Translations under genes and position numbers: made by a program
The notes under the pieces: model-generated
Databases searched by the model: none
The model's input: the letters and a program-made list of their open reading frames with translations, nothing else
What the model was told of the DNA's origin: nothing
Part shown: positions 34,976 to 61,556 of the stretch, one piece after another
Numbering within the stretch: position 1 is the first letter of the stretch
Layout of the letters: every line of letters begins with the position of its first letter
Source of the DNA: Aestuariibaculum sp. M13
Lineage (GTDB): Bacteria; Bacteroidota; Bacteroidia; Flavobacteriales; Flavobacteriaceae
NCBI RefSeq assembly: GCF_024723255.1
Contig: NZ_JANIAC010000002.1
Span: 558,001 to 622,000, forward strand
Direction: 5' to 3'
Length of the DNA: 64,000 nucleotides

Positions 34976-35060
34976 GGAGAAATGGCAGAGTGGTCGAATG
35001 CGGCGGTCTTGAAAACCGTTGAGGGTCACACCTCCGGGGGTTCGAATCCCTCTTTCTCCG
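34976..35060 (+). tRNA. tRNA-Ser (UGA)
   Basis: Acceptor stem GGAGAAA / TTTCTCC with discriminator G, anticodon loop CTTGAAA giving anticodon TGA, a long variable arm (GAGGGTCACACCTC) as in serine tRNAs, and T-loop GGTTCGAATCC. No CCA is encoded. Its 3' end is the attachment site of the integrative element. Confidence 0.95.
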
Positions 35061-35061
35061 C
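35049..35061 (+). other. attL core (13-bp direct repeat)
   Basis: CCTCTTTCTCCGC overlapping the last 12 bases of tRNA-Ser; identical to 60856-60868. Confidence 0.85.
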
Positions 35062-35129: not shown

Positions 35130-35173
35130 ATTTTTGGCAAGTACTCAAAATACCCATTAATTGTCAAATCTAA

Positions 35174-35256
35174 GTTACCCTATAGGTTACCCTAGCCTAG
35201 TTACCCTGATAATTACCCAAGTTGTTACCCTGACAAATTTAAAAATATTGGGTAAC
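35174..35256 (+). repeat. GTTACCC repeat cluster (left integrase arm sites)
   Basis: GTTACCC occurs at 35174, 35186, 35200 and 35224, a variant ATTACCC at 35212, and an inverted GGGTAAC at 35250. The first two form GTTACCCTATAGGTTACCC, which recurs exactly near the right end. Probable arm-type binding sites for integrase or excisionase. Confidence 0.7.
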
Positions 35257-35340: not shown

Positions 35341-36561
35341 ATGATTAAAACAATTTTCTATTTAAAATCGGACAAAGAAAACAACAAAGGTGAATCTGCT
35401 ATCTATGCAAAGATTTCATTAAGGGGTAAATCAACAACTTTGGCTACGGGAAAATACATCTCGAAAGAAAGATGGGACTTTACAAATAAACTCAAAAATA
35501 CTGTAAGATTAAATCCCGAAAAAGTATGTCAACAAACCTTAGAACGACTAGATTCTAAAATTGAAAGTATATATCTTGAATTATCAAAAAACAACTACAA
35601 TGTAACTCCTCTTGAAGTAAAGAATAATTTAACTGGAAAAACTGAAAAAATTGAAGGTTTAGATATTCTTAAGCTTTTTGATAAACATAATAACTTCTTT
35701 CAAAAACGATATAATGCTGGTGAACGCTCGAAAGCTTCACTTCAAAAATATAAAAGAGCAAGAGATTTAATTGCAAGTTTTATTAAAGTGAAATATTTTA
35801 AAACAACATTTCCATTAATAGAAATAGACAATAAGTTTATTTATAGTCTTGAAGATTACTTAAAATACGAATCTTCGTTTAATGGAAAAAAAGGAATAAG
35901 TCATAACTCTGTTGTGAAATATTTTCAATGTTTCTCGACTATGTGTAATTACGGGATTAAACATAGTATTATCAAGTATAACCCCTTTTCTGTGTACGAT
36001 GAAAAGTTAATAATTACAGATGCTGTATTTCTTACTAAAGAAGAATTACAACGAATAGAAAACAAGGAATTTGAAACAGATAGACTTAACAAAGTTAAGG
36101 ACATATTCTTATTCTCATGTTATACAAGCTATGCGCCATGCGACGTTGAAAAGTTAACCAAAAACAATCTTATTAGGGATAATGAAGGTGTATTTTGGAT
36201 AAAGACGAATCGTGCAAAAACAAATACTAAATCTAACGTACCGTTAATACCACCAGCGAAACGAATACTTGATAAGTATGAATATTTAGATGAAAAAAAG
36301 TTACTACCTAAAATATCAAATCAAAAAATAAATGAATACCTCAAAGAAATAGCAACCTTATGTAAAATCAATAAAAAGCTCACCCACTATGTAGCTAGGC
36401 ACACCTTTGCTACAACCATAACTTTAGGAAACGGTGTTTCCCTTGAAAATGTTAGTTCAATGATGGGGCATACCAGAATAACCATGACACAACATTACGC
36501 TAAAGTTCTGGATGAAAATGTAAAAAATGACATGGAAAAATTAAAACATATATATTCATAA
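35341..36561 (+). CDS. Tyrosine recombinase (element integrase)
   Basis: A 406-residue phage-type integrase with arm-binding N-domain (1-90), SAM-like core-binding domain (about 105-215) and catalytic domain (about 225-400). Catalytic residues visible: Arg353 and His354 (YVARHTFATT), His377 (MMGHTRI) and Tyr386 (TQHYAKV). The first catalytic Arg position reads TSYAPCDVEKL without Arg, as in several Bacteroidetes integrases such as IntDOT. The box II His is one residue further from Arg353 than usual (His349). It acts on the tRNA-Ser att site next to it. Confidence 0.93.
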   Translation: MIKTIFYLKSDKENNKGESAIYAKISLRGKSTTLATGKYISKERWDFTNKLKNTVRLNPEKVCQQTLERLDSKIESIYLELSKNNYNVTPLEVKNNLTGKTEKIEGLDILKLFDKHNNFFQKRYNAGERSKASLQKYKRARDLIASFIKVKYFKTTFPLIEIDNKFIYSLEDYLKYESSFNGKKGISHNSVVKYFQCFSTMCNYGIKHSIIKYNPFSVYDEKLIITDAVFLTKEELQRIENKEFETDRLNKVKDIFLFSCYTSYAPCDVEKLTKNNLIRDNEGVFWIKTNRAKTNTKSNVPLIPPAKRILDKYEYLDEKKLLPKISNQKINEYLKEIATLCKINKKLTHYVARHTFATTITLGNGVSLENVSSMMGHTRITMTQHYAKVLDENVKNDMEKLKHIYS

Positions 36562-38650: not shown

Positions 38651-40069
38651 ATGATAACACATATAAATAAACAGAAGCTTGGAGTTTGGTTGCCAAATAA
38701 GTTATTCCACGCCCTTGAAATAAAGATTAAAGATTATAACAAATCAACCACTGGTATGAAACTAAATTTGACTAAAGCATCATATATTTTGAATCTATTA
38801 TACTATATCCCTTTAAGTACAAATGAAAAATATGAAGATGGTTGGATACCTATTTGCAGTCAGGCTTTATTAAGGATTAAAGGATATAAAAAGTATATCG
38901 CATTCCTTCAGAATGAAGATTTCTTAAATAAAAAATGTATTGAATATAGCACAATATCCAATGCATGTAAAAAATATAAGATAGGTGATGCCTATATAAA
39001 ACATTTGATTGATTTTCATTGGTTAGAGGATAATTCAAACTTCATAAAGAAATCGAATGAGATTAAAATTAGTAGAATGAATGTAGCAGATGAAAAGTGT
39101 TCACATTTAACTAAGTGGCTTAATCCAGAACTATTATCAATAGATTCCCTTTCAGCATTGAAATATATACAAGATACTTATATAAATGATTCACAGATAA
39201 AAAATAAAAACAAAAGAATCTTCATTGTTAAATCTATTCAGAATAAATGTTGGTCATTTAGTAGAGAAGGACTAGATAATAGGTTGCATTCAATATTCAC
39301 TGCAATACCGAAAGATTTAAGAAAATATGTGAAATATAAGGGAGAACAATTAATATCCTTAGATATTAAGAACAGTCAGCCTTTTATTTTAGCTTCAATT
39401 TTAAAACAAATAATAAAACCAAGTGTTAATTTATTAAATAATTATTTATCTAATGAATATAATACACTACATGTCTCTATTATGTCAGACCTTTTATATG
39501 GTGACCAGCATAATGAAATTCAAACCTTTATCAATCAAGTATTAGATGGTACATTTTACGAACATTTTGGAGATATACTTTATAACGAAGGATTGATATC
39601 TAAAGACATAAACGAAGAATGCTATATAGGAATACCAAAAAAGATAAGAGGAATTTGGATTAAAAAACATACTAATTACGATAATTTAAGAAAGGTCAGT
39701 AAAGATGTGGTTATGCAAATTCTGTTTTCATCTGAAAAGCATAGTTCAGAATTCATAACCGTATTCAAAAAATATTATCCTGAATTGTATAGAGTCATTC
39801 AATCTATTAAAAAAGAGAATGAGAAGAATTTCTTTCCTGTTTTATTACAAAACATAGAAGCTGATTGTATTTTAGACCATTGTACGAGGTATATTTCCTA
39901 CAAACACCCAGATATGCCATTATTTACTATTCATGACTCTATTGTAACTACAGAGCCTTATGAGGCTATATTAGAAGAGGAGTTAAATAGACTACTTGGT
40001 ATTTACTTTGGCCTAAAACCAAGATTGGAAAGTGAGCTTTGGACTCAGCAATTTGATGAGGTTGGTTAA
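38651..40069 (+). CDS. Compact A-family / T7-RNAP-like polymerase
   Basis: A 472-residue protein with three palm/finger motifs in correct order: motif A SLDIKNSQP (Asp238), motif B RKVSKDVVMQILFSS (Arg347, Lys351) and motif C TIHDSIVTT (His428-Asp429). Motif B mirrors T7 RNA polymerase RSVTKRSVM, and motif C mirrors its IHDSFGT. Both metal-binding aspartates are present, so activity is expected. It is half the size of known single-subunit RNA or DNA polymerases and has no visible exonuclease. The N-terminal 200 residues are unassigned. Likely role: replication or priming of the excised element. Confidence 0.6.
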   Translation: MITHINKQKLGVWLPNKLFHALEIKIKDYNKSTTGMKLNLTKASYILNLLYYIPLSTNEKYEDGWIPICSQALLRIKGYKKYIAFLQNEDFLNKKCIEYSTISNACKKYKIGDAYIKHLIDFHWLEDNSNFIKKSNEIKISRMNVADEKCSHLTKWLNPELLSIDSLSALKYIQDTYINDSQIKNKNKRIFIVKSIQNKCWSFSREGLDNRLHSIFTAIPKDLRKYVKYKGEQLISLDIKNSQPFILASILKQIIKPSVNLLNNYLSNEYNTLHVSIMSDLLYGDQHNEIQTFINQVLDGTFYEHFGDILYNEGLISKDINEECYIGIPKKIRGIWIKKHTNYDNLRKVSKDVVMQILFSSEKHSSEFITVFKKYYPELYRVIQSIKKENEKNFFPVLLQNIEADCILDHCTRYISYKHPDMPLFTIHDSIVTTEPYEAILEEELNRLLGIYFGLKPRLESELWTQQFDEVG

Positions 40070-40397: not shown

Positions 40398-40556
40398 ATG
40401 AAACTACCAAATCCATCTAAAGATGAAGTTTTACTAATTAGAATAAGTAAAAAAGAAAAAGAACATTTAAAAGAATTAGCTAAAAAAGGCAAACATGGAA
40501 CAAATGCCAGTGAAGTTGTTAGAAATCTAATTGAACGTGAATACTTTAAAAAGTGA
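40398..40556 (+). CDS. Ribbon-helix-helix protein
   Basis: A 52-residue protein, preceded by a good Shine-Dalgarno (AAAGGAG, 6 bases from ATG), rare in this window. The sequence VLLIRISKKEKEHLKELAKK, then NASEVVRNLIEREY, has the strand-helix-helix layout of Arc/CopG regulators, with hydrophilic strand residues facing DNA. It lies alone upstream of the defence operon and next to a palindrome, so it may control itself, replication or the operon. Confidence 0.65.
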   Translation: MKLPNPSKDEVLLIRISKKEKEHLKELAKKGKHGTNASEVVRNLIEREYFKK

Positions 40557-40771: not shown

Positions 40772-43693
40772 ATGCTAGAATATAACTTAGATTCGTTAAA
40801 CGTTGATAATGAAAAAAAGGAAGCTATTAGCAGCACAGAAGGTCCTTTATTAATTATCGCTGGTCCAGGCTCTGGAAAAACCAAAACTTTGGTTGAAAGA
40901 ATTGTATACCTCATCTCTAAAGGAATAAAACCTGAAGAGATACTCGTTGCTACTTTTACTGAAAAAGCTGCAAAAGAGCTCATAACAAGAGTTTCTAATA
41001 GGCTTTTAGAACTAGAAGTTAAAATAAACTTGAATGAAATGTACATCGGAACTTTACATTCAATTTTTTTAAGATTTTTAGAAGAACATAGAGAATATAC
41101 TAGGTTAAAGAGAAGCTATAAATTATTAGACCAATTTGACCAAAGGTTTTTTATCTACAGAAATATTAAATCTTATTTAGATTTAGATGGAGCAGAAGCT
41201 TTATTAGGGGATTTTAAGGTATCCAACTGGATTAAAGCAGACAAATTAATTGGCTATATCAATACCGTTGGTGAAGAAAACCTTAATATTAAAATCCTCA
41301 AAGAAAGTGATGACATAGGAGTTCAAACCATTGGTAAGTTTTACGAAATATACTCTAAACAGGTTGAAGAAGATAACTCCTTGGACTTTTCATTTATCCA
41401 AAGTGAGGCGTACAATTTGTTTATCAACCATCCTAACATTCTTAATGAAATACAGAATAAGATAAAATATTTCATGGTGGATGAATATCAAGATACAAAT
41501 ACAATACAAGAAAAAATAATACTTCTCTTAGCCAATAAAAACAATAATCTGTGTGTTGTGGGAGATGATGACCAAGGGTTATACCGATTTAGAGGAGCGA
41601 CTATTCGAAATATATTAGAATTTCCTCAAAACTTTTCTAGTGGTCTTTGCAAACAAGTCACCCTGACAACAAACTATCGTTCTCATCCAGAAATAATCAG
41701 TTTTTACAATAGATGGATGGCTGAGTTAGATTGGACCGAAAATGGTAAACAATTTAGATATGACAAATTAATTCAACCAAGAACTGACAATTTTATTGAT
41801 AATGCATCAGTAATAAAAGTATCCAATGAAGGGTCCATAGAAGATTATTATGAGGAAGTTTATCAATTTATAATTGATTTAGAAAAAAAGGGAGTACTTA
41901 AAGATAGAAATCAAATTGCTTTTTTATTTAAGTCTGTTAAGAATCAAAAAGTAATTGGTTTATCTGAGTATCTTGAAGAAAAAGGAATTCAAATTTTTTC
42001 TCCACGCTCGTCTTTATTTTTTGAGCGTAATGAAGTTAAATTACTTGTTGGTGCTATTGTATTTGTATTTCCAGATTTATTTGAAATTTTAAAGTGGTCA
42101 GATACAGCAAAACTTGAAATTTGGGACTATTATAATCACTGTAAGATTCTTTTCGCTAATGCAATTAGAAACGACCTTGAAAAGCATAAAACCCTATTAC
42201 AATGGTGCCAAACTAGAGCTAAGCAGCATTTAACTTTAACCGAGGGAACTAATTACAGTTTTGCTGCATTAATTTATCAACTTCTGGAATACCCTATGTT
42301 TTCAGAGTATTTAGATATAAAGTTAAATGCAAACAAAACAGATTTAAGAGCTTCCTACAACATCGCATTATTTACAAAATTACTTTGGAAATTTGAATAC
42401 CTCAACAATGTCACAGTAATTACACCAGAAAATAAAGAAAAGCTATTAAAAAACCTATTTAACGAATTCATAAGGTTTGTCTATGATGGTGGTATAGAAG
42501 AATACGAAGATTTCGATGAGTATGCTCCTTCTGGTTGTGTTTCATTTATGACTATCCACCAATCAAAAGGTTTAGAATTTCCTATTGTTGTAGTTGGAAT
42601 GCCTAATAATAGACAGGGACCAAGAACACAATATACTGAAACCGATGCAATCTTACAGGAAAACTATTATGATAAACCACCTTTTGAACCACTTGAATTA
42701 ACCAAGAACTACGATTTCTGGAGACTTTATTATACTGCCTTTTCTAGACCTCAAAATCTTTTAGTTCTGAGTTGCCGAGAAGAAAAAAATAAAAATGGTA
42801 GTTTTAGTTCTCCTAATAAATTATTTAAAGATTTATACCAAGAAACACCTTCTTGGAAAAGAGATGTTTTTGATGCAACTAAGTTGGAATTAGAAACCAT
42901 CAAACCAACCAATATAAAACATGAATATTCGTTTACATCACATATCCTCCTTTATGAAAATTGTCCTCAACAGTATAAGTTTTATAAAGAATTAGAATTT
43001 ACAGAGGTTAGAACTGGAGGTGTTCTAGGTGGGCAACTTTTACATCAAACTATCGAAGATATTCATAAAGCTGTTTTAAAAGGACAAGTCGAAACCCTGA
43101 CAAATGAGAATATAGAAAGCTGGTTTAACACCAATTATCACTTATTATCTAAACAACAGCGCTCCTATTTGCATAAACCTCAACAAATAGCCCTATTAAA
43201 ACAAATTTTAAACTACCGAGATAAAAACTCTAACGATTGGGATAAGATAGTTGAGGCTGAGGTAGATGTTTCCTTAGTTAAAGAGGATTATATATTAAAA
43301 GGAACTATAGACCTAATTAAAGGTCAAAATGGAACGGTTGAACTGATAGATTTTAAATCAGGCGACAAACCTGATGTAAATGCTACTGATGAATTAACAA
43401 GAAATACTCTAGACCGATATAGAAGACAATTGGAGGTTTATGCTCATTTAGTAGAAGAAAGAACTGGGCATAAAGTAAGTAAGATGCATCTACATTATCC
43501 AAAAGAACAAAATGGCAGTCCTTTTGTTAGTTTTAATAAAAATGAAAACACAATAAACCAAACGATTGAATCCTTTGACAGAGTTGTCAAAAACATTGAG
43601 AAAAAGAACTTTGATAATTCACATATTAAAAAGAATGAAAAGCAATGTTCTGATTGTGATATGAGATATTACTGTAACCCAAGACAATATTAA
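40772..43693 (+). CDS. UvrD-like helicase fused to Fe-S PD-(D/E)XK nuclease
   Basis: A 973-residue SF1A helicase: Walker A AGPGSGKTKT (Lys36), VDEYQDTN (motif II), VVGDDDQGLYRFRGA (motif III) and TIHQSKGLEFPIV (motif V). The C-terminal region (about 725-973) is a RecB/Cas4/AddB-type nuclease with Asp847, Asp860-x-Lys862 (IDFKSG) and four cysteines (Cys731, Cys959, Cys962, Cys968) spaced as a [4Fe-4S] cluster. It would unwind and degrade DNA ends. First gene of a four-gene run spaced by 1-5 bases with a helicase, methyltransferase and Res-like gene. Confidence 0.92.
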   Translation: MLEYNLDSLNVDNEKKEAISSTEGPLLIIAGPGSGKTKTLVERIVYLISKGIKPEEILVATFTEKAAKELITRVSNRLLELEVKINLNEMYIGTLHSIFLRFLEEHREYTRLKRSYKLLDQFDQRFFIYRNIKSYLDLDGAEALLGDFKVSNWIKADKLIGYINTVGEENLNIKILKESDDIGVQTIGKFYEIYSKQVEEDNSLDFSFIQSEAYNLFINHPNILNEIQNKIKYFMVDEYQDTNTIQEKIILLLANKNNNLCVVGDDDQGLYRFRGATIRNILEFPQNFSSGLCKQVTLTTNYRSHPEIISFYNRWMAELDWTENGKQFRYDKLIQPRTDNFIDNASVIKVSNEGSIEDYYEEVYQFIIDLEKKGVLKDRNQIAFLFKSVKNQKVIGLSEYLEEKGIQIFSPRSSLFFERNEVKLLVGAIVFVFPDLFEILKWSDTAKLEIWDYYNHCKILFANAIRNDLEKHKTLLQWCQTRAKQHLTLTEGTNYSFAALIYQLLEYPMFSEYLDIKLNANKTDLRASYNIALFTKLLWKFEYLNNVTVITPENKEKLLKNLFNEFIRFVYDGGIEEYEDFDEYAPSGCVSFMTIHQSKGLEFPIVVVGMPNNRQGPRTQYTETDAILQENYYDKPPFEPLELTKNYDFWRLYYTAFSRPQNLLVLSCREEKNKNGSFSSPNKLFKDLYQETPSWKRDVFDATKLELETIKPTNIKHEYSFTSHILLYENCPQQYKFYKELEFTEVRTGGVLGGQLLHQTIEDIHKAVLKGQVETLTNENIESWFNTNYHLLSKQQRSYLHKPQQIALLKQILNYRDKNSNDWDKIVEAEVDVSLVKEDYILKGTIDLIKGQNGTVELIDFKSGDKPDVNATDELTRNTLDRYRRQLEVYAHLVEERTGHKVSKMHLHYPKEQNGSPFVSFNKNENTINQTIESFDRVVKNIEKKNFDNSHIKKNEKQCSDCDMRYYCNPRQY

Positions 43694-43694
43694 G

Positions 43695-46064
43695 ATGACT
43701 GTTTTAGAATTAAAATCAACTTGTATAAATGGCACTCAAGTTTACTTGGATTGGTTAATTGAAAACGACAAAGGATTACAGACCATTGACATTAATTCTA
43801 TTACCACAAAAGATAAAATCCACTATAAATTTAAATTATCATCAAAGTTATTTGATTCAGAATCTATCCTTATTAGACATGTACCAAGCTCAAAAGACTA
43901 TAGCGACCTTTTTAAAATAATCGAATATGATGCCGATAAAAGAGTATTAATTTTAAAAAAGGACAAAGAATTTCCATTTGAAATAAGTAACGAAAAGCGA
44001 GATAATATTAAGATTGTTTCAAGTCTTAGGTTTTTAGTTCAAAATATCATTGACTGGTACCAACAAAACGGAGACAAACTTAAATTACCAACTCAAAAAT
44101 CTCCTCTTTTTAATTCCTCTTCGAAAATTGAATTTGAAAACAACACTTCAAACGAACAAAAGGAAGCTATAAAAATGATTTTCGAAGCGCCGTTTTCATA
44201 TGTTTGGGGTGCCCCAGGTACTGGTAAAACCAGATGGGTTTTAACCCAAGCAATGCTGCAATACATAAACCAAGGTAAACAAATAGCTATACTCGCTCCT
44301 ACTAATAATGCAATTGAACAAGTATTGGAAGCTATTATTCCAATTGCTCAAAAGAAAGGAATACCACTTAAAAAGTTTATACGGCTAGGAAACCCAAGTT
44401 CAAAATTTTCTGAACTTTATCCAGATATCTGTGAAATAGCAGGTTTAGAAAAGCAACTAAAACAAATTGATAGCAGAATAGATTTTTTAAATAGGCATTC
44501 TTCTTCAGTCATCGAACAAAATAAGATTCAAACTGCTAAAACTTCAAAATTATTAGTCAAATACGAATCTTCGTTAGGCGACTATTTACTTTGTGAATCA
44601 AAAAAGAAAGAGCAAAAGCAAACCATTAAAGAGTTAGATGAAAAACTAGATAACCTAAGAAAAGGTCTTAAAAATCAAAAGCAAGGACTTTTAAACGTTA
44701 AACTTCAAAGGGAAAGTTTAATTAATAAAATTGGCGCCTTTTTTGGCTTAAATAATAGAGACTATGACTCTGAAATAAAAGAATTAGATAAATCTTGTGA
44801 TACATCAAACCAGCAAATTATTAATACTACTCAGAAAATCGATATTGAAAAACAAGAATTAGATAAGATTAATATACACTCGTATAATTTAGACCTAGCT
44901 AACCAAACTGATTATAAAGAAGTATTAAATACATTCTCCTTTTTATTTGATGAAAACGAAAGTCATTTAAAGCATCCTATTAAAATCTCAAGAACTGAAA
45001 TAGAAATAAAATCCAGAATTGAAAAACGCCTTTCTAAATTTGAATCAGACGCTCTTTTAGCATTAGAGTATAGTAATTTGGATGCATATGGTATTGAAAA
45101 GCTTATTCTTGAATTAAAAGAGAAAAGAGACAACTTAGCTGCAATGACTACAGCGCAACGACTAGAAAGTGTTTCAGTAGTAGCTTGTACCCTAGATAGC
45201 TATATAATGCGTTTTGTAGATACTCATTTAACTGTTAATCATATTTTCGTTGATGAAGCTGGATATGCCAATGCTTTAAAAACGCTACCTTTATTTATAA
45301 ATAATATCCCTGTTACACTTTTAGGGGACCACAAACAATTACCTCCTGTTTGTGAATTAAACGATTTTGTTATTGAAAAAGATAAGACATTCTATGATGC
45401 CTATTTATGGCATTATACAAGTACATGTATCGATAGCTTATTTGTTCAAGACAAAAATGAAACCTACAGTAATTTTGTAAATAAAGTACAGCTAACTAAA
45501 AACCAAATGTTGTACAATGCACTAAGAACAACATATAGATTTGGAAGCAACTTGGCTAAGGTTTTAGGAGATTATATTTATAGTATAGATTTTAAATCTG
45601 GTAGTACTATCAATAATACGGAGATTTTCTATATAAACGCTCCCAAAAGAATGGATGAATTACGTAGTAGAAAAAGCGACAATGAAATAAACGCAATAAT
45701 GAAATTAGTTGTACAATTAGATGCTAGTAACGAAGAATATGCCATTCTTTCTCCGTACCGAAAAGGGCAACTGTATCAACTAAGCCGTAGTCTACCGAAT
45801 CAAAGAGATAACGAGCAAATTCTTACTGTTCATGGCTCACAAGGAAGAGAATGGAACACTGTTATTTTATCTGTTGTGGATACTAGCGACATGTATTTTA
45901 CTAATACTTCTAGACCAAATGCTATCGGAAGAAATTTAATTAATACGGCTGTGAGTAGAGCAAAAAAAAGGCTTATTATTGTAGCAGATACTCATTTTTG
46001 GTTGAACCAACACAACCAATTGATTTCTGAATTATTAAGAATAGGAAAAGAAATAGAAATATAA
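43695..46064 (+). CDS. SF1 (Upf1/Dna2-like) helicase with coiled-coil insertion
   Basis: A 789-residue ATPase. Motifs: Walker A WGAPGTGKTRW (about 171), FVDEAGYAN (motif II, about 518), LLGDHKQLPPV (motif III), VHGSQGREWNTVIL (motif V) and NTAVSRAKKRLIIV (motif VI). A charged helical insertion (about 250-425) between motifs Ia and II looks like an antiparallel coiled coil. The N-terminal 140 residues are beta-rich and may bind nucleic acid. It starts 1 base after the UvrD stop, indicating translational coupling. Confidence 0.88.
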   Translation: MTVLELKSTCINGTQVYLDWLIENDKGLQTIDINSITTKDKIHYKFKLSSKLFDSESILIRHVPSSKDYSDLFKIIEYDADKRVLILKKDKEFPFEISNEKRDNIKIVSSLRFLVQNIIDWYQQNGDKLKLPTQKSPLFNSSSKIEFENNTSNEQKEAIKMIFEAPFSYVWGAPGTGKTRWVLTQAMLQYINQGKQIAILAPTNNAIEQVLEAIIPIAQKKGIPLKKFIRLGNPSSKFSELYPDICEIAGLEKQLKQIDSRIDFLNRHSSSVIEQNKIQTAKTSKLLVKYESSLGDYLLCESKKKEQKQTIKELDEKLDNLRKGLKNQKQGLLNVKLQRESLINKIGAFFGLNNRDYDSEIKELDKSCDTSNQQIINTTQKIDIEKQELDKINIHSYNLDLANQTDYKEVLNTFSFLFDENESHLKHPIKISRTEIEIKSRIEKRLSKFESDALLALEYSNLDAYGIEKLILELKEKRDNLAAMTTAQRLESVSVVACTLDSYIMRFVDTHLTVNHIFVDEAGYANALKTLPLFINNIPVTLLGDHKQLPPVCELNDFVIEKDKTFYDAYLWHYTSTCIDSLFVQDKNETYSNFVNKVQLTKNQMLYNALRTTYRFGSNLAKVLGDYIYSIDFKSGSTINNTEIFYINAPKRMDELRSRKSDNEINAIMKLVVQLDASNEEYAILSPYRKGQLYQLSRSLPNQRDNEQILTVHGSQGREWNTVILSVVDTSDMYFTNTSRPNAIGRNLINTAVSRAKKRLIIVADTHFWLNQHNQLISELLRIGKEIEI

Positions 46065-46065
46065 G

Positions 46066-48018
46066 ATGGAGCAAGGTAAATTAGATATACAAGTAGAGAA
46101 AAAATTAGAAACTGTAGAAGATTATAAATTTGAACCAATCAAAGGATATGCAATGCTTCATTGGAAAGGTAAACGACCTTTTACCTCAACACAGTTCTAT
46201 CCTGCTCAATTAAAAGAAACATATGGAAAAGAAGTTAATGGATGGTTAAACAAAATTTTTTGGGGAGATAATCTTCAAGTGATGTCCCATCTTCTTAAAG
46301 AATATAGAGGTAAAATTGACCTAATTTACATTGACCCCCCTTTTGATTCCAAAGCTGACTATAAAAAAAGTATAGGCATAAAAAATAAAACCTCTACCAC
46401 AGATATAAATGCTTTCGAAGAAAAGCAATATACTGACCTATGGAGTTCTGATGGATATCTTCAATTTATGTACGAAAGAATAATCTTATTAAGAGAATTA
46501 TTGAATGAGAATGGAGTAATTTCTCTCCATTGTGACTGGCACAAAGTACACAATCTAAGATGTATTATGGATGAAGTTTTTGGGCATGAAAATTTTGTAA
46601 ATGAAATAATTTGGCAAAAAATACGAACAGCTAAATCTCAAAGTACATCATTCGGCAATATTCACGACACTATCTTAATTTATTCTAAAACAAAATCCTT
46701 TACTTACAACAAACAATATTTTGAACCAGATTTCAAAAAATTAAAAAAACATTATAGTAAAACAGATGAACAAGGTAGAATTTATCAACCCGTTTCATTT
46801 ACCCAAGATGGACAAGGAGAGCCCCGAGATTTTGGTGAAAAAGGAATACTTATACCTCCTCCAGGCAAACATTGGATATGGTCCCAAGATAGAATTTGGG
46901 ATGGATTAAAAAAAGGACTAATTGAATTTTCTGATAATGGTAATCCTAAAAAGAAAATGTTTCTTGATGATGTTAAAGGAACAGCTATTGGTGATATATG
47001 GACAGACATATTTCCTTTAAATTCAATGTCAAAAGAAAGAACCGATTACCCAACCCAGAAACCTGAAAAATTATTAGAAAGAATAATTACTACATATACT
47101 AATCCAGGAGATTTAGTGTTTGATTCATTTATGGGGTCTGGAACAACACAAAATGTATCGATGATATACGGAAGAAGGTTCTTAGGTTCAGATATTAATT
47201 TAGGAGCTATAGAAACAACTATTAAAAGACTCTTAAAAACCTCAAAGTCAATAGAAATACAATCTCCTTCAATCAAAGTAAATTCTGACAATGAAAACGA
47301 TTCGTTAGTTGATATATTTTACACTGGTTATTCAGTTTTTAATGTAAACAATTATGATGTTTTTCGAAATCCCGTTCAAGCTAAAGAAATCTTAAAACAA
47401 GCATTGGAAATACAACCATTACCAAATAATACTATTTATGACGGTGAAAAAGACGGTAGAATGGTAAAAATAATGCCTGTTAATAGAATTGCAACCAGAG
47501 CAGATTTAAATGAATTAATTAGTGGTTTTAACATAAAATCGTTCGAAAAAAAGTTCGAAACATCTCCTAACAAACCTGTAGAAAATATATTGCTTATTTG
47601 CATGGGGCATGAACCAGATTTAGCAGCCACTTTACAAAAAGAAATGCACCCTTTTAAATTGGATGTTGAGGTAGTAGACATACTTAGAGACAAAGCAAAT
47701 CTAGAATTTAAGCGAGATTCTGAAGCTGAGGTAAAAATTACAGATGACACATTGGTAATTGAGCAGTTCTACCCAATGAACTTGCTTCAGAAACTTTCCT
47801 TAATGAAAGAGAATGTTGAAGATTGGAAGGAACTAACTGAATCTGTAAAAATAGACTTTAACTACGATGGTGCTGTTTTCGAACCACAAATTGTAGATGT
47901 TCCTGAAAAAAATGAATTGGTATTAGGGGAATACCCTATTCCAGAAGATGCTGGAACAATTAGAATAAAAATAACGGACTTACTATCAGAGTCTTTAGAA
48001 TTAACCATTGAAAACTAA
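46066..48018 (+). CDS. Type III Mod-like DNA adenine methyltransferase
   Basis: A 650-residue beta-class N6/N4 methyltransferase: catalytic motif IV LIYIDPPFD (90-93) precedes the SAM motif VFDSFMGSGTT (353-361), with TDYPTQKPEKLLERII between them. The segment 150-330 would hold target recognition. The C-terminal 250 residues are unusual for Mod and include LICMGHEPDLA and EYPIPEDAGTIRIKI. Asp-Pro-Pro-Phe favours adenine but N4-cytosine is possible. It starts 1 base after the helicase stop and 5 bases before the Res-like start. Confidence 0.88.
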   Translation: MEQGKLDIQVEKKLETVEDYKFEPIKGYAMLHWKGKRPFTSTQFYPAQLKETYGKEVNGWLNKIFWGDNLQVMSHLLKEYRGKIDLIYIDPPFDSKADYKKSIGIKNKTSTTDINAFEEKQYTDLWSSDGYLQFMYERIILLRELLNENGVISLHCDWHKVHNLRCIMDEVFGHENFVNEIIWQKIRTAKSQSTSFGNIHDTILIYSKTKSFTYNKQYFEPDFKKLKKHYSKTDEQGRIYQPVSFTQDGQGEPRDFGEKGILIPPPGKHWIWSQDRIWDGLKKGLIEFSDNGNPKKKMFLDDVKGTAIGDIWTDIFPLNSMSKERTDYPTQKPEKLLERIITTYTNPGDLVFDSFMGSGTTQNVSMIYGRRFLGSDINLGAIETTIKRLLKTSKSIEIQSPSIKVNSDNENDSLVDIFYTGYSVFNVNNYDVFRNPVQAKEILKQALEIQPLPNNTIYDGEKDGRMVKIMPVNRIATRADLNELISGFNIKSFEKKFETSPNKPVENILLICMGHEPDLAATLQKEMHPFKLDVEVVDILRDKANLEFKRDSEAEVKITDDTLVIEQFYPMNLLQKLSLMKENVEDWKELTESVKIDFNYDGAVFEPQIVDVPEKNELVLGEYPIPEDAGTIRIKITDLLSESLELTIEN

Positions 48019-48023
48019 AAGTG

Positions 48024-50690
48024 ATGGCTAAAAAAAAGACAAATTCAGATATAGATTTTCCTTTCTATACCTATCTAAAACTTTTTCACGATAATAACAA
48101 GAAAAAAGTATACAACTCATATAAACCTTTAACCAAAAAGTTTTTAGACTTTAATAATCCTGAAAACCCCACAGCATATTTGCGCCAACCTCAGTTCGAG
48201 GCATTAGAAATGTATGTTTTCCTTAAAGAATTTTTGGAAAACAACTACCTATATGAAGTTTTTGAAAATTGGTTTAACAAAACTGGTAAATTCGAAAAAC
48301 GTGATGATGTTGGTATTTCTAAAACGAAAGGAACTGTAGGAACCCTTAACATGTTTGGTCCTTCTGAGTTCCAAAATGAAGATAAATTAGTTTTCAATGA
48401 GGTGTTTAAACAAATAGAGTCTTTTAAACAGATATATCCAAACTACATTTTTGCTTTAACAATGGGACTTGGAAAAACTGTATTAATGGCAACCTCTATT
48501 TTTTATGAATTTCTCTTAGCTAATAAATACCCTAAAACAAACAGATATTGCCATAATGCACTGGTATTTGCTCCTGATAAGACAGTATTACAATCACTTA
48601 AAGAAATTGAAACTTTCGACAAGTCAAAAGTGATTCCACCTGAATATGCTAACTGGTTAGACACGCATTTAAAATTTCATTTTTTAGATGATACAGGGGT
48701 CTCCTTAAATGCATTAGATAACTCAAAGTTCAATATTATCATTTCTAACACACAAAAGATAATATTAAAAAAACAGCACAAACAAAAGTCACCCTCTGAA
48801 AGCTTATTTAACGACGGTGGTGCGTTACATAAAGCAAAGTCTCTAAATAAAGATTTCGAGGACCTATATGGCTTCGAAATTGACACAGATGTAGAATTAC
48901 TATCGAATCAAAGATTCGCTAAATTAACTCGCTTAAAACAGCTTGGGATATATGTAGATGAGGCACACCATGTATTTGGCACCAACCTAGCAAAAGATTT
49001 TGGACTTAAAAAAACCTCAACCAGTCTTAGGGTAACTATCAATGAATTAGCAGAAGCTTTAGATGAAGCAGGTTCAAGGGTTGTTGGCTGTTATAATTAC
49101 ACGGGGACTCCTTACGTTGGAAAAAGATTATTACCTGAGGTAGTTTATGCTTATGGCCTAAAGGAAGCTATTGATAATAAATTCTTAAAAAAAGTTAGAA
49201 TTGAAGGTTTTGAGAATGTTAAAACTCAAACAAAAGCATTTGTTAGAGCAGCTATTTCAGAATTTTGGGAAAAACATAACGGCAAACGATATGAGGGTAT
49301 GCTCCCTAAATTCGCTTTTTTCGCTTCATCAATTGATGAGCTCCAAAATGAATTAAGACCTATTATTGAGGACATTTTAGTAGAGTTAAACATACCTATT
49401 AACAAGATATTAGTTAATGTTGGAGATGATAAAATCACAAGTAATGATGACCTTCGAGAATTTAGAAACCTTGACAGACCTGAATCTAACAAACAATTCA
49501 TATTACTAGTAAACAAGGGTAAAGAAGGTTGGAATTGCCGTTCCTTATTTGGTGTAGGATTACATAGAGAACCTAAATCAAAAGTATTCGTTCTTCAGGC
49601 TGCTATGAGATGTTTAAGGGCTGTAACCGAAGTGCAACAAGAGGGGATGGTATATCTTTCAGACGAAAACATAAAAATACTAGAAAACGAATTAGAACAA
49701 AACTTTAAACTTTCGGTTGATGAACTAACAAGTGCTGGAGACAGTAAAGATTTAGTTGAAATTAGACTGGTCCCTCCCCCTGTCAAGATTAAAGTTAAAA
49801 GAATCAAAAAACTCCATCAATTAAAAGAAAATAAGATTAAAGATGGTGTTAACCTAGAAATTGATAAAATCGATTTCGAAGCTTATAAAATAAGAAGAAC
49901 GGTTAGAGATATAAGAGATTTATCAGATGCCAAGAAAAACGGAGAATTAACGGATATCGATAAAAGGGAATTCTCAGAATACACCTTAGTTTCTGAAATA
50001 GCAAGATACTTATATCACCCTGAAGGCGTTGACAACCTAAGTAAAATAAGCTGTTTAGAAATAAGAAAAGTCTTAACCAACTCTGTTGATGGTATAAAAA
50101 AAGTCTTAGAAGCGGTTAACAAACATAATGAAGTCCTTTATGACTGGGTTATCCCCAAACTATTCAATTCATTCTACACTATAGACTCTTTTAACAAAGA
50201 AGAGGAAGAGGAAATTGAATTGGTAAAAGAACCAAAAGAAGGGTTCTATAGAATGAAAGCTAAAGCTGAATTAATTGCTAATATAGAGGACCCTAGATAC
50301 TCTTTATATAAAGAGAAGTCATTTCATTTAGATAACTATTGTTTTGACTCATTGCCTGAATCTTCAATGTTTACCTCTCTTTTAAAAGATGAGGTTATTG
50401 AAAAGGTGTGGTTTACGGGAATGTTAACACATGGACAATCTGATTTTTTAATTAGATATATTGACCCAGAATCTCATACTGTAAGAAGTTATTACCCTGA
50501 TTTCCTAGTCAAAGTTAAAACTGAAGACAATTCTGAGAAATATGTTATCATCGAGGTTAAAGGAGACAACAAGATAGATGATGCCGTAGTAAAAGCTAAA
50601 TCTGATTATGCATCACAATTAGCAACTGCCAGTGGAATGACCTATCAAATTGTTAAAGGTTCAGAAGCAGCTAATGGTATAATGGTTTAA
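48024..50690 (+). CDS. Type III Res-like helicase-endonuclease
   Basis: An 888-residue SF2 enzyme; I use the ATG at 48024 rather than the GTG one codon before. Motifs: Walker A LTMGLGKTVL, DEAH box YVDEAHHVFG, TGTPYVGK (motif III) and QAAMRCLRA (motif VI). The C-terminus has a PD-(D/E)XK nuclease: YYPDFLVKV followed by YVIIEVKGDNK. This matches type III Res subunits and pairs with the Mod-like gene directly upstream, forming a type III-like restriction-modification core. Confidence 0.87.
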   Translation: MAKKKTNSDIDFPFYTYLKLFHDNNKKKVYNSYKPLTKKFLDFNNPENPTAYLRQPQFEALEMYVFLKEFLENNYLYEVFENWFNKTGKFEKRDDVGISKTKGTVGTLNMFGPSEFQNEDKLVFNEVFKQIESFKQIYPNYIFALTMGLGKTVLMATSIFYEFLLANKYPKTNRYCHNALVFAPDKTVLQSLKEIETFDKSKVIPPEYANWLDTHLKFHFLDDTGVSLNALDNSKFNIIISNTQKIILKKQHKQKSPSESLFNDGGALHKAKSLNKDFEDLYGFEIDTDVELLSNQRFAKLTRLKQLGIYVDEAHHVFGTNLAKDFGLKKTSTSLRVTINELAEALDEAGSRVVGCYNYTGTPYVGKRLLPEVVYAYGLKEAIDNKFLKKVRIEGFENVKTQTKAFVRAAISEFWEKHNGKRYEGMLPKFAFFASSIDELQNELRPIIEDILVELNIPINKILVNVGDDKITSNDDLREFRNLDRPESNKQFILLVNKGKEGWNCRSLFGVGLHREPKSKVFVLQAAMRCLRAVTEVQQEGMVYLSDENIKILENELEQNFKLSVDELTSAGDSKDLVEIRLVPPPVKIKVKRIKKLHQLKENKIKDGVNLEIDKIDFEAYKIRRTVRDIRDLSDAKKNGELTDIDKREFSEYTLVSEIARYLYHPEGVDNLSKISCLEIRKVLTNSVDGIKKVLEAVNKHNEVLYDWVIPKLFNSFYTIDSFNKEEEEEIELVKEPKEGFYRMKAKAELIANIEDPRYSLYKEKSFHLDNYCFDSLPESSMFTSLLKDEVIEKVWFTGMLTHGQSDFLIRYIDPESHTVRSYYPDFLVKVKTEDNSEKYVIIEVKGDNKIDDAVVKAKSDYASQLATASGMTYQIVKGSEAANGIMV

Positions 50691-50714: not shown

Positions 50715-51059
50715 ATGGAGGTATTGTATTTTCAGGTTGGAATATTCTTAATTATTGTAATTGCTGGATTATTTGGAAATTCTTCTAGAAATACGGCTAC
50801 AATTTTAGCAATTATTTTCACCATTGCAATGGTGTTCACCTCTCAACTAATGATTGTACAATTCATAACCATTGTCATATCCTATATTGTTTCAAGAAGC
50901 ATATCAAAAAATTCTAAGGATAAAAATCTTGATGATTACGAAAAGTACAGGCAGAAAAACCAGAATAAAACAAGTTTTGGGGATAAATTGGGTTGCATAT
51001 TTATCTCCCTTTTGGCTCTCCTAACAGTGTTAGCGGTAATAATCGAGAAGGTTAGATGA
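50715..51059 (+). CDS. Small membrane protein of the defence operon
   Basis: A 114-residue protein with two N-terminal hydrophobic helices (about 5-22, 27-62 possibly two) and a C-terminal helix (about 92-110), separated by a charged KNSKDKNLDDYEKYRQKNQNK loop. No family recognised. It lies 24 bases after the Res-like gene and 18 bases before the DUF262 gene on the same strand, so it belongs to the operon and could be a membrane effector or anchor. Confidence 0.55.
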   Translation: MEVLYFQVGIFLIIVIAGLFGNSSRNTATILAIIFTIAMVFTSQLMIVQFITIVISYIVSRSISKNSKDKNLDDYEKYRQKNQNKTSFGDKLGCIFISLLALLTVLAVIIEKVR

Positions 51060-51077
51060 TAATTATAAATTTCTTCT

Positions 51078-52910
51078 ATGTCAAATAATCAATTAGAAAA
51101 TCAATTTTCAATTAAAGCCAATACCTTTACCCTGAAGCAAAACATTGATGATAATAAAAATGTAGTACTTAACGAGGATTTAAAATATGTAATTCCAATT
51201 TATCAACGTCCCTACTCATGGACTGAAGAACAAATAACAAAATTTATTTCAGATATTTTTATCTCCTTTTACGGCTATGATAAAAATTCAAAACCAGAAC
51301 CCATGTTTATTGGAACGATGCAACTTTCTGGTCAAACAAAACAAAATGGGCATAAAATAGAGCAAGAAGTTGTAGACGGGCAACAAAGACTAACTACATT
51401 TATTTTACTTCTTAAACTACTGTCTAAGGAATTTAACGACAACAACGAACTTAAAAACCTCAACTTTGATTGGCTCGAAACTAAGGTTAACAGCGGAGAA
51501 CAACAAAAATTTCTCACCACTTTTTTAAATGCTGAAACCTACCCTATTTTAAATGAAGAGACTCTCAATCCTTATTTAAAAAATGCTGCTATTATTCAGC
51601 AACTTTTAAATGAAGAATTTAAAGATGAACTTGGTAACTCTATAAATTTTGATATTGATGCCTTTATAAATCACTTATATTCCAATATCTACTTTGTGAT
51701 TATAGAAACTTTTGCAGGGCTTTCAAAAACACTTCAAATTTTTGATGCAATAAATACAACGGGGTTAGACCTTAATGGAAGTGATATTTTTAAGATAAAA
51801 ATGTACGAGTACCTTAAGGATTTTGAAAAAAAAGATGATTCGGTATTTGAGGAAATAAGTTCATTATATGCAAAAGTAGATAGGCTGAATTTGGAACTTG
51901 ATTCCAATATTGCATTTTCTGAAATTTTAGGAATTTATAGTGATATACTAATTTCAAAATATAGTCTGAACACATCTTTATATTCTTTGGGAGCTGATAC
52001 TTTCTTTGAAAGATTATTTGATACTATTTTTAATATAAAAGTTTGGAAAGATTTTAATAATGCCCATAAAGTCCAATTAAGTATTGATGAATTGGAAAAA
52101 ATTATTGATGCCAGGTTTTTATGGGAAAAATTGCCATATCCAACTTTTGAAGACTCTTGTTTAATGCACATTACTTGGTGGTCAAGATATAGACGATTTT
52201 GGACGATAATTATTATTTTCATTTATAAATACAATCCCCAGAAGAACGACTTATTTTTATTCACCAATCGCTTAAATAAATTATATTTCTTGTATAGTAT
52301 ATATTTCGACAGAGCTATAAATAATATATATACATTCACACATAGGCTAATTGATAAAATTATTAATGATGAAAATATTGTTGATATAATAGAATCAATA
52401 GAAAATAAAATTCATGGTGAAGTTCCTTATTATGAATTAGAAGGTAAACTTGTATTTGAAAAAAACTTAAATGGGGATATTGTTTATAACCCTAAAAAGA
52501 AAAATTTGATATGCAGAGTTTCTGCAATGTTAGATGAAGAATACAAGAAGCAAACGAATTCCGATAAATTAAAAGAATACTTTTTTAATAATGCAAAGTT
52601 CCCAAATGATATTGAACATATCCAGTCTTTTAATGATGAAAATTTAAGCTTAAGGGATAAAATTAAACAAGAATGGGGTGAAAATTTAAACTCAATTGGG
52701 AATTTAGTCATCCTTGAAAGAGATATCAATAGAAGTATTAGTAATAATTGTTATCCAGAAAAAGTAAAAGAATACACTAAAAGTAAATTCAGTATTGTTC
52801 AAAAACAGGTTAAGAACCATAAAGAATGGACTTTAGAAGATTGTAAAAATAGAAAAGAAAAAGAAATAACTAAATTATCATCTTACCTATTTGATAGCAT
52901 TAAAAACTAA
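51078..52910 (+). CDS. DUF262/DUF1524 (GmrSD-like) protein
   Basis: A 610-residue protein. The N-terminal DUF262 domain has VIPIYQRPYSWTEEQI and EVVDGQQRLTTFILLLKLL, the nucleotide-binding/DGQQR motif of GmrS. The C-terminal DUF1524 region has PNDIEHIQSFNDENLS and LNSIGNLVILERDINRSISNN, resembling the His-Me nuclease of GmrD (the usual EHIxP reads EHIQS). Single-chain GmrSD proteins restrict DNA with modified bases. Its place next to a methyltransferase system suggests a second, modification-dependent barrier. Confidence 0.85.
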   Translation: MSNNQLENQFSIKANTFTLKQNIDDNKNVVLNEDLKYVIPIYQRPYSWTEEQITKFISDIFISFYGYDKNSKPEPMFIGTMQLSGQTKQNGHKIEQEVVDGQQRLTTFILLLKLLSKEFNDNNELKNLNFDWLETKVNSGEQQKFLTTFLNAETYPILNEETLNPYLKNAAIIQQLLNEEFKDELGNSINFDIDAFINHLYSNIYFVIIETFAGLSKTLQIFDAINTTGLDLNGSDIFKIKMYEYLKDFEKKDDSVFEEISSLYAKVDRLNLELDSNIAFSEILGIYSDILISKYSLNTSLYSLGADTFFERLFDTIFNIKVWKDFNNAHKVQLSIDELEKIIDARFLWEKLPYPTFEDSCLMHITWWSRYRRFWTIIIIFIYKYNPQKNDLFLFTNRLNKLYFLYSIYFDRAINNIYTFTHRLIDKIINDENIVDIIESIENKIHGEVPYYELEGKLVFEKNLNGDIVYNPKKKNLICRVSAMLDEEYKKQTNSDKLKEYFFNNAKFPNDIEHIQSFNDENLSLRDKIKQEWGENLNSIGNLVILERDINRSISNNCYPEKVKEYTKSKFSIVQKQVKNHKEWTLEDCKNRKEKEITKLSSYLFDSIKN

Positions 52911-52916
52911 CTAATC

Positions 52917-54044
52917 ATGTACAAAATAAATAAAGGTGAAAATAAAATATCCCGATTAGAAGAGAAATCTTTCAAAGAATTAGGCTTTACAGAAAGAGCT
53001 CACCTTCAAGAATGGCTTGCTGATAATCCAACAGCTTTAGGTGAAGAAATGCTTATTATCCAAAAAGAATTTAGTGGCTTTAATGAAACCAATGAACGTT
53101 TGGATTTATTAGCCCTAGACAAGCAAGGTAGCTTAGTTATCATTGAAAACAAATTAGATGATAGCGGAAAAGATGTCACATGGCAATCTCTAAAATATGC
53201 CTCATATAGCTCTAGTCTAACAAAATATCAAATTAGAGATGTTTATCAGGATTACTTAAATAAATACGAGAATGGAGATAATGCTGAAGATAAACTATCC
53301 GATTTTTTTGATGGAAAAGATTTTGAGGAATTAAGCTTAAATGTTGGCACAACACAGCGTATTATGATGGTTTCTGGAAGATTCAGAAAAGAAGTTACTT
53401 CAACCGTCCTATGGCTAATGAGCTACAATATACGTATCCAGTGTTTCAAAGTCACTCCTTTTGCGATGAATGACGACCTTTTTCTTAATATAGAACAAAT
53501 CTTGCCTGTTAAAGATGCTGAAGATTTTTCCATCTCTATGGCTAATAAGGTTCAAGATGAAATTGCTGCTCAAGAATCTCTAAAAAACAGGCATCACGTA
53601 AGATTAGCTTTCTGGAAAGAATTTTTAAAAGAAATAAATACGAGTAATAATCTTTTTTCTAACATATCTCCTTCAAAAGATAATTGGTGTGGAATTGGAA
53701 TTGGTTTGAGTGGCGTTAACCTAAATGTTGTTGCTACTAAAAAATCATGTAGAGCTGAAATATATATTAATAGAGGAAATAAGGATGAAAACAAAGAGTT
53801 TTTTGATTTCCTTGAAAAAATGAAACCTGAAATAGAATCTACTTTTGAAGATAATCTCATCTGGGAAAGAATGTCAGACAAAGTTTCCTGTAGAATTAAA
53901 GCTCAGTTAGATAATGTAGATATCTTTGAACCTAACGATTGGGAACAAATGATATCATTTTTAACAGACGCTGCTCAGAGAATGAACAAAGCTTTTAAAA
54001 ACCCTATTAAAAAGTTAAGTAATTACGCTAAGAATAAATCGTAG
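52917..54044 (+). CDS. DUF4268 protein with PD-(D/E)XK nuclease-like domain
   Basis: A 375-residue protein starting 6 bases after the DUF262 gene. The N-terminal part has RLDLLALDKQGSLVIIENKLDD (Asp then Glu-x-Lys), the core of a NucS/PD-(D/E)XK nuclease-like fold, followed by GKDVTWQSLKYASYSS. The C-terminal half (about 225-360, with RLAFWKEFLKEIN and NWCGIGIGLSGVNL) matches DUF4268. Such proteins often sit beside restriction systems; direct nuclease activity is likely but untested. Confidence 0.8.
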   Translation: MYKINKGENKISRLEEKSFKELGFTERAHLQEWLADNPTALGEEMLIIQKEFSGFNETNERLDLLALDKQGSLVIIENKLDDSGKDVTWQSLKYASYSSSLTKYQIRDVYQDYLNKYENGDNAEDKLSDFFDGKDFEELSLNVGTTQRIMMVSGRFRKEVTSTVLWLMSYNIRIQCFKVTPFAMNDDLFLNIEQILPVKDAEDFSISMANKVQDEIAAQESLKNRHHVRLAFWKEFLKEINTSNNLFSNISPSKDNWCGIGIGLSGVNLNVVATKKSCRAEIYINRGNKDENKEFFDFLEKMKPEIESTFEDNLIWERMSDKVSCRIKAQLDNVDIFEPNDWEQMISFLTDAAQRMNKAFKNPIKKLSNYAKNKS

Positions 54045-60647: not shown

Positions 60648-60777
60648 TGTATTACCTAAAAACAGAATTCCCTATTAAATGATATTAATAATCATATTTC
60701 ATAATCCAACTAAATTAATACATCATATAACGGAAAAATAAATTCATATATTTGTTATATCAAATAAAACAACAAGA

Positions 60778-60796
60778 GTTACCCTATAGGTTACCC
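60778..60796 (+). repeat. Right integrase arm site
   Basis: GTTACCCTATAGGTTACCC, identical over 19 bases to 35174-35192, 60 bases inside attR. Confidence 0.75.
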
Positions 60797-61476: not shown

Positions 61477-61482
61477 CTTTTG

Positions 61483-61556
61483 GGTGGAAGATCGGTCTCG
61501 AACCGACGACCTCCTGAACCACAATCAGGCGCTCTAACCAACTGAGCTACAACCAC
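61483..61556 (-). tRNA. tRNA-His (GUG)
   Basis: On the minus strand: D-arm GCTCAGTTGGTTAGAGC, anticodon stem-loop with GTG, T-loop GGTTCGAGACC, and a G immediately 5' (61557) that can be the His-specific G-1 opposite C73. The acceptor stem GTGGTTG / CTTCCAC has two U-U mismatches (5-68 and 6-67). Confidence 0.9.

What the first reader, a model, noticed from the sequence alone, without database searches (positions are those of the whole stretch)
40772..50690. Four-gene module: Fe-S nuclease UvrD helicase, SF1 helicase, Mod-like methylase, Res-like helicase-nuclease
Genes are spaced 1-5 bases, implying translational coupling and one complex or pathway. The Mod/Res pair is type III-like, but standard type III systems do not carry a RecB/Cas4-type Fe-S nuclease-helicase (Cys731, 959, 962, 968) plus a coiled-coil Upf1/Dna2-like helicase. 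The set does not match BREX, DISARM or Gabija as I know them, so it may be an undescribed methylation-linked defence system.
Basis: partly seen in the sequence, partly recalled or inferred. Interest (0 to 1): 0.86.

Follow-up and report, generated by a model that had tools for sequence, protein, structure and literature searches.

The report
Embedded helicase in known restriction operon
Three of the four genes form an already described bacterial DNA-restriction operon found across many phyla, and the fourth, a helicase gene, looks like a rare extra gene inserted into it.

Summary
The genes, coordinates, 1-5 bp spacings and Fe-S cysteines are real. The "undescribed four-gene system" reading is not supported.

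UvrD-Cas4, Mod and Res form a conserved three-gene operon: in 80 of 89 relative loci a UvrD-Cas4 match precedes Mod-Res; 3 lack it, 6 are cut off. UvrD-Cas4 and Res distances correlate at r = 0.978 (72 sets), while Mod's recognition region varies independently (r = 0.03). This neighbourhood was described in 2017 (PMC5704561).

The SF1 helicase is not part of that core. A relative lies in 1 of 89 core loci, there after Res, and in 1 of 40 core-bearing genomes. The nearest core relative, Kordia algicida, has the trio only. The helicase's closest relative found (53%) sits near a Hachiman pair; another lies beside mobilization genes.

Other loci hold different genes between UvrD and Mod (9 of 80) or Mod and Res (8 of 88), including OLD-family nucleases. 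The helicase is best read as an embedded, portable defence candidate inside a known UvrD-Cas4 type III operon. No activity was tested.

The parts
40772..43693 (+). UvrD-Cas4 fusion: UvrD-type SF1 helicase plus C-terminal PD-(D/E)XK nuclease with four-cysteine Fe-S motif (973 aa)
   Evidence: K36, D237, E238, D847, E857, D860, K862, C731, C959, C962, C968 in 72 of 72
43695..46064 (+). embedded Upf1/IGHMBP2-like SF1 helicase with probable coiled-coil insertion (789 aa); not part of the conserved core
46066..48018 (+). Mod: amino-methyltransferase with DPPF 90-93 before FxGxG 355-359, variable recognition region about 190-310 (650 aa)
48024..50690 (+). Res: SF2 helicase (GLGKT 149-153, DEAH 313-316, numbered from GTG 48021) with C-terminal PD-(D/E)XK nuclease (D827, E845, K847); start taken as ATG 48024
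40398..40556 (+). 52-aa ORF, weak ribbon-helix-helix similarity (E = 0.013, below the curated cut-off), possible regulator ahead of the operon
51078..52910 (+). GmrSD-type (type IV restriction) protein, neighbouring defence gene in the same strand run
52917..54044 (+). DUF4268 protein, PADLOC candidate PDC-S11
35341..36561 (+). phage-type integrase of the island
35173..35192 (+). 20-bp direct repeat, left copy, between tRNA-Ser and the integrase gene
60777..60796 (+). 20-bp direct repeat, right copy; attachment site or integrase-binding site, not resolved

Best explanation
A three-gene type III-like restriction-modification operon (UvrD-Cas4, Mod, Res) with an unrelated SF1 helicase gene embedded between uvrD-cas4 and mod. 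Inferred mechanism: Mod methylates one sequence in the host genome; Mod-Res, like EcoP15I, finds unmethylated sites on incoming DNA and Res cuts it; UvrD-Cas4 then loads at the break, unwinds and degrades the DNA (a RecB/AddB-like role), making the cut irreversible. The embedded Upf1/IGHMBP2-like helicase is a portable defence gene that shares the operon's expression rather than a subunit. Shown here: the gene set, conserved catalytic residues, the three-gene core, UvrD-Res covariation of distances, the variable recognition region, and the rarity and portability of the helicase. Inferred: methylation, cleavage, resection, defence, and the helicase's function.
For: Core: 80 of 89 loci have a UvrD-Cas4 match upstream of Mod-Res, from several phyla by record title. 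In 62 of 68 loci measured Mod and Res lie within 30 bp of each other or overlap. Residues checked: UvrD-Cas4 and Res 72 of 72; Mod DPP 71 of 72 with one gap, G359 71 of 72. UvrD-Res distance correlation r = 0.978; 0 of 999 permutations reach it on the earlier 69 sets. Mod recognition region: median pairwise identity 0.24 against 0.69 for the rest of Mod, r = 0.03 with Res. Mod's best solved matches are 6k0w (named Mod), EcoP15I Mod 4zcf and others. Best Foldseek hit of the Res model is EcoP15I Res 4zcf_C, E = 1.9e-12. Embedding: SF1 in 1 of 89 core loci and 1 of 40 core genomes; Kordia algicida, nearest in all three core proteins, has no SF1; SF1 relatives near Hachiman and beside mobilization genes. 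Prior description of the trio: PMC5704561.
Against: No activity is known for this operon or, in what I read, for any UvrD-Cas4/Mod/Res operon. Res has no sequence match in the PDB set at E <= 0.01, none in PADLOC at E <= 0.001 and only 58 bits against a cut-off of 800 in NCBIfam. The fold match has low TM-scores (0.32/0.43, rmsd 27), and RadD, LlaBIII and chromatin remodellers follow closely, so it partly reflects the shared helicase fold. Three loci with more than 3 kb upstream lack UvrD-Cas4 (L021, L041, L051), so it may be dispensable. All loci were chosen by Res similarity, and high UvrD-Res correlation could reflect joint inheritance without contact; I had no neutral gene pair as a control. 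The SF1 relative in L020 lies just after Res, so a working link with this system is not excluded. Absence from Kordia could be loss rather than lack of an insertion.
Confidence: 0.75

Rival explanations
1. A true four-component system: the SF1 helicase is a functional subunit or motor working with UvrD-Cas4, Mod and Res.
For: 1-bp gaps on both sides. A relative lies directly after Res in the Bacteroidia locus L020, although the family is rare: besides the own genome, 0 of 295 phylum, 1 of 394 class and 1 of 396 family genomes have it (sets overlap, E cut-offs 1e-20, 1e-15, 1e-30).
Against: Absent from 88 of 89 core loci and 39 of 40 core genomes. The two core-linked copies are only 36-38% identical and in different positions. 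The closest relative found (53%) has no core gene in the 15.8 kb fetched.
Confidence: 0.12
2. UvrD-Cas4 is only an associated repair helicase that limits self-damage from Res (for example by processing accidental breaks), not a restriction component.
For: RecB/AddB-like domain make-up; PMC5704561 proposes an ancillary, recombination-like role in different pathways; three loci lack it.
Against: r = 0.978 with Res; upstream position in 80 of 89 loci; a similar trio, by annotation, with a different methyltransferase and helicase on a Priestia plasmid. None of these excludes it.
Confidence: 0.2
3. A pure methylation/epigenetic operon or decayed restriction remnant.
For: No activity data for this strain.
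Against: All four reading frames are open and the checked residues of both nucleases and both core helicases are intact.
Confidence: 0.05

Closest known systems
UvrD-Cas4 / type III Mod-Res loci (PMC5704561, 2017; passages read)
   Same: UvrD fused to a Cas4-like pfam12705 nuclease, beside type III Mod and Res; defence role predicted there.
   Different: The window has an SF1 helicase between uvrD-cas4 and mod; the passages I read do not mention one, and the figure is not held.
EcoP15I-type type III restriction-modification
   Same: Mod matches 4zcf_A at E = 8.9e-32; Res model's best fold match is 4zcf_C.
   Different: Extra UvrD-Cas4 gene; Res has no PDB sequence match at E <= 0.01; specificity and cleavage unknown.
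Three-gene m4C type III systems of PMC8259958 (abstract, section 13 part 1, sections 17 and 18 read)
   Same: An extra ATPase/helicase gene 5' of mod and res.
   Different: Their extra gene is described as SF2-like without a PD-ExK motif; here it is UvrD-type with one.
Gabija
   Same: UvrD-like helicase; the window UvrD scores 6.7e-56 with a GajB model (second to RTasHel, 9.5e-62).
   Different: No OLD nuclease in the window operon. OLD-family nucleases do follow UvrD-Cas4 in L020, L024 and L079.
Mokosh MkoA
   Same: The SF1 helicase matches MkoA (3.5e-38).
   Different: Only profile positions 599-1081 of 1112.
Defence genes embedded in other systems (TgvAB in type I R-M, PMC11411939; DarTG2 in type I R-M, PMC12255303; passages read)
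   Same: Independent defence genes sit inside restriction operons.
   Different: Hosts there are type I systems; here a UvrD-Cas4 type III operon.

Membership tests
Type III restriction-modification | Mod: amino-methyltransferase with DPPY/F before FxGxG and a variable recognition region between | tested here: met
Type III restriction-modification | Res: SF2 helicase with C-terminal PD-(D/E)XK nuclease, encoded next to Mod | tested here: met
   Pfam ResIII and TnsA-like nuclease; residues 72 of 72
Type III restriction-modification | Res homologous to EcoP15I Res as a whole | tested here: inconclusive
   top Foldseek hit 4zcf_C, E 1.9e-12, but TM 0.32/0.43; no sequence-level match
Type III restriction-modification | One-strand methylation of an asymmetric site and ATP-dependent cleavage | not testable with these tools
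   needs methylome and biochemistry
UvrD-Cas4/Mod/Res loci of PMC5704561 | UvrD fused to Cas4-like (PF12705) nuclease next to Mod and Res | tested here: met
UvrD-Cas4/Mod/Res loci of PMC5704561 | UvrD-Cas4 belongs to the same single clade as in that paper's tree | not tested
   their sequences were not compared
Gabija | OLD nuclease GajA beside GajB | tested here: not met
   no AAA_15/OLD TOPRIM hit among the window proteins scanned
Mokosh | Full-length MkoA or MkoC architecture | tested here: not met
   best match covers profile 599-1081 of 1112 only
Hma | helicase, m5C methyltransferase, ATPase trio (PMC8565338, passages) | tested here: inconclusive
   no Hma model in the lists shown, but only the best 25 of 59 (UvrD) and 25 of 60 (Mod) are shown; Mod is an N6/N4 enzyme by Pfam
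BREX / DISARM | their hallmark genes | tested here: inconclusive
   none among hits for the SF1 helicase (11 of 11 shown) or Res (0 hits); lists for UvrD and Mod are cut at 25

The most novel reading that the evidence does not exclude
UvrD-Cas4 is an obligate third subunit of a distinct type III class, a cut-and-degrade machine, and its operon is a plug-in platform: the gaps on either side of mod accept swappable defence genes (SF1 helicase, OLD nuclease, CHAT-domain protein, HNH, PLD, DUF3800), so embedded genes there are a source of undescribed defence systems, the SF1 helicase being one that protects on its own.
Probability: 0.3. Interest if true: 0.68.

Novelty: new variant of a known kind. 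Interest (0 to 1): 0.42.

Why it matters
UvrD-Cas4 type III operons are widespread: one scan found 209 stretches encoding Res relatives (tblastn E <= 1e-3), and 71 of the 80 kept have UvrD-Cas4 upstream. Yet the PADLOC models used here gave no hit to Res at E <= 0.001. If UvrD-Cas4 is a true subunit, type III restriction includes a built-in DNA-degrading motor, which can be tested in a laboratory E. coli. The embedded genes point to further defence candidates, including this SF1 helicase family, whose four contexts seen here are restriction (two), near Hachiman, and beside mobilization genes.

Tried and rejected
Four-gene obligate system: rejected. Gabija and Mokosh membership: rejected. SF1 relatives in phages: none in the phage records at E <= 1e-5; plasmids gave six partial matches of 24-27% identity; IMG/VR gave one 55-residue match, not used. 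Neighbour genes 50715, 51078, 52917 and the small ORF 40398 as part of the system: no match in the 89 core loci at E <= 1e-5. The SF1 structure model was too poor (mean pLDDT 46) to search with. A 57-residue SF1-like match at the edge of the Kordia locus (E = 3.6e-5) was dropped because the whole genome has no relative at E <= 1e-15. Rfam: only the two tRNAs. The UvrD-Mod gap figures differ between (46 of 68 within 30 bp; 45 of 71 at most 100 bp, median 38) because start codons were picked by a heuristic; for inserted genes I use the slot counts. The first distance analysis lost loci with split matches and was redone (18 of 89 loci still dropped as incomplete, split or truncated).

Full report
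The window has four close + strand ORFs at 40772-50690 with gaps of 1, 1 and 5 bp. Pfam gives UvrD helicase plus PDDEXK_1/Cas4; AAA_11/AAA_12; N6_N4_Mtase; and ResIII plus a TnsA-like nuclease. The window is part of a 4.16-Mb genome in 9 contigs. The nearest relative of Res in the named genome collection is Kordia algicida (74%); I infer a flavobacterial host from this but did not test it.

Related loci. On plasmids, Res has 27 records with a match, 14 covering at least 80%; I fetched 9 of the 27 (L010 and L011 are near copies). In genome contigs, 209 stretches encode a relative and the best 80 were kept. Of these 89 loci, 80 have a UvrD-Cas4 match upstream of Mod (some cut by a contig end or split into two pieces), 3 with more than 3 kb upstream lack it (L021, L041, L051), and 6 are truncated and cannot be judged. 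By record title the UvrD-bearing loci include Bacteroidota, Proteobacteria, Bacillus relatives, Poribacteria and Anaerolineae. The operon is usually tight: in 46 of 68 loci measured UvrD-Mod lies within 30 bp, and in 62 of 68 Mod-Res does; Mod and Res overlap in 45 of 71. Five loci have 345-441 bp between UvrD and Mod with no ORF of 60 aa.

Conservation. In 72 aligned sets (71 loci plus the window; 18 of 89 loci dropped) the checked helicase, nuclease and Fe-S residues of UvrD-Cas4 and the helicase and nuclease residues of Res are present in 72 of 72. Mod DPP is in 71 of 72 with one gap, position 93 is F in 66 and Y in 5, and G359 is in 71. Pairwise distances of UvrD-Cas4 and Res correlate at r = 0.978, of the Mod core with Res at 0.878, and of the Mod recognition region (190-310) with Res at 0.031; that region's median identity is 0.24 against 0.69 for the Mod core. 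A Mantel permutation on the earlier 69 sets gave 0 of 999. I read this as a restriction system whose specificity turns over while its machinery stays together. It does not prove physical contact, and there is no neutral gene pair as control.

Structure and family. Mod's best solved matches are 6k0w (named Mod), EcoP15I Mod 4zcf and others including Mbo45V 7dsu. Res has no PDB sequence match at E <= 0.01, no PADLOC match at E <= 0.001, and an NCBIfam match of 58 bits against a cut-off of 800. Its AlphaFold2 model (47 sequences, mean pLDDT 76, pTM 0.60) has EcoP15I Res as top Foldseek hit, E = 1.9e-12 over 789 columns. TM-scores are low (0.32/0.43), and RadD, LlaBIII and chromatin remodellers follow at 1e-11 to 1e-9. 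I take it as type III-like, not as proof of whole-protein homology.

Literature. PMC5704561 (passages) states that the most common neighbourhood of UvrD-Cas4 fusions holds Mod and Res genes of type III systems, sometimes with WYL, HTH and Schlafen-type genes, and predicts a defence role. PMC8259958 (abstract, section 13 part 1, sections 17 and 18) describes m4C type III systems with a different third gene, an SF2-like ATPase without a PD-ExK motif. In the listings I saw no title or abstract start about an SF1 helicase in this operon or an experimental test of the trio. I read passages of eight further papers from these listings, found by term, and did not see it there; most subscription papers are not held.

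The SF1 helicase. It resembles IGHMBP2/SMUBP-2 and Upf1 and the helicase part of MkoA. Relatives: in 1 of 89 core loci, L020, there just after Res; in 1 of 40 core-bearing genomes, the same one (40 of the 80 genome loci were given). Besides the window's own genome it was in 0 of 295 phylum, 1 of 394 class and 1 of 396 family genomes (sets overlap and cut-offs differ). The closest relative found, in G995 (53%), lies about 0.8 kb from a HamB/HamA pair on the other strand (Hachiman). In G362 (34-35%) it follows a relaxase and a T4SS coupling-protein gene, with an integrase about 6 kb downstream. No core gene was found in the 15.8 and 19.9 kb fetched there; the rest of those genomes was not searched for the core. 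Kordia algicida, closest in all three core proteins, has the plain trio and no SF1 relative in its genome at E <= 1e-15. The simplest reading is an insertion into the operon with 1-bp junctions; loss in the Kordia lineage is not excluded.

A recurrent slot. Between UvrD and Mod, 9 of 80 loci hold one or more ORFs of at least 60 aa; between Mod and Res, 8 of 88 do. They differ: OLD-family nucleases in L020, L024 and L079; a CHAT-domain protein and an HNH protein in L061; a PLD protein in L020; DUF3800 in L045; others with no or only weak family matches. Only two pairs are related to each other, L020/L024 (54%) and L018/L050 (67%). Some could be chance insertions: L021 and L044 hold ORFs that I take, from recall, for transposase- and toxin-like genes. 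Embedded defence genes are known in type I operons: TgvAB in V. cholerae (PMC11411939) and DarTG2 in E. coli (PMC12255303) (passages). The preprint on embedded defences, cited by PMC12255303 and PMC12988326, is not held.

Surroundings. The operon lies between tRNA-Ser (34976-35061) and tRNA-His (61482-61556). An integrase is at 35341 and a 20-bp direct repeat at 35173 and 60777, with a mean of 0.00 matches in 100 shuffles. Its GTTACCC core occurs four times on the left and twice on the right, so it may be an integrase-binding site rather than the crossover site. The stretch between the tRNAs is 26.4 kb here, about 12.9 kb in G641 and 4.5 kb in G642; in G640 about 4.5 kb, measured from a shorter match. 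This is a size-variable spot in the genus (three congeners seen). Downstream of Res lie a GmrSD-type protein and a DUF4268 protein, neither recurring in the 89 core loci.

Verdict. The trio is a known kind of system; the new element is the embedded helicase and the operon's habit of hosting other genes. The mechanism, cut by Res then degradation by UvrD-Cas4, is inferred from domain content and covariation and is untested.

Noticed in passing
L020:4585-6705, L024:5997-8057, L079:6055-8019: OLD-family (AAA_15 plus TOPRIM) nucleases between UvrD-Cas4 and Mod in three operons, a Gabija-like pairing inside a restriction operon.
   Followed up: partly
L109:8770-15079: Closest SF1 helicase relative found lies about 0.8 kb from a Hachiman HamB/HamA pair on the opposite strand.
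   Followed up: yes
window 35061-61482: Size-variable island between tRNA-Ser and tRNA-His with a 20-bp direct repeat near both ends; three congeners have about 4.5-13 kb there.
   Followed up: partly
window 50715-54044: A 114-aa protein of no family, a GmrSD-type protein and a DUF4268/PDC-S11 protein follow Res in a close same-strand run.
   Followed up: partly
window 40398-40556: 52-aa ORF with weak ribbon-helix-helix similarity in the 700-bp gap before the operon; possible regulator.
   Followed up: partly
L111:7977-17073: Priestia megaterium plasmid with a UvrD-Cas4 relative (41%) followed, by annotation, by a large methyltransferase and a large DEAD/DEAH helicase: perhaps a second Mod/Res type with UvrD-Cas4.
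   Followed up: partly
L039:5524-9239: Two mod-like stretches in tandem between UvrD-Cas4 and Res in a Poribacteria MAG.
   Followed up: no
L036 and L037: MAGs labelled Desulfobulbaceae and Kapaibacterium share nearly the same locus (Res and downstream matches at the same coordinates) but their Mod stretches differ in length; possible transfer or mis-binning with a specificity change.
   Followed up: no
window 38651-40069 and 56341-58611: Large ORFs of the island without any Pfam match at E <= 0.01.
   Followed up: no
L018:9707-10000 and L050:9703-9996: Related 97-aa proteins (67% identical) between Mod and Res in two Bacteroidota loci; the L018 copy has no Pfam match.
   Followed up: no
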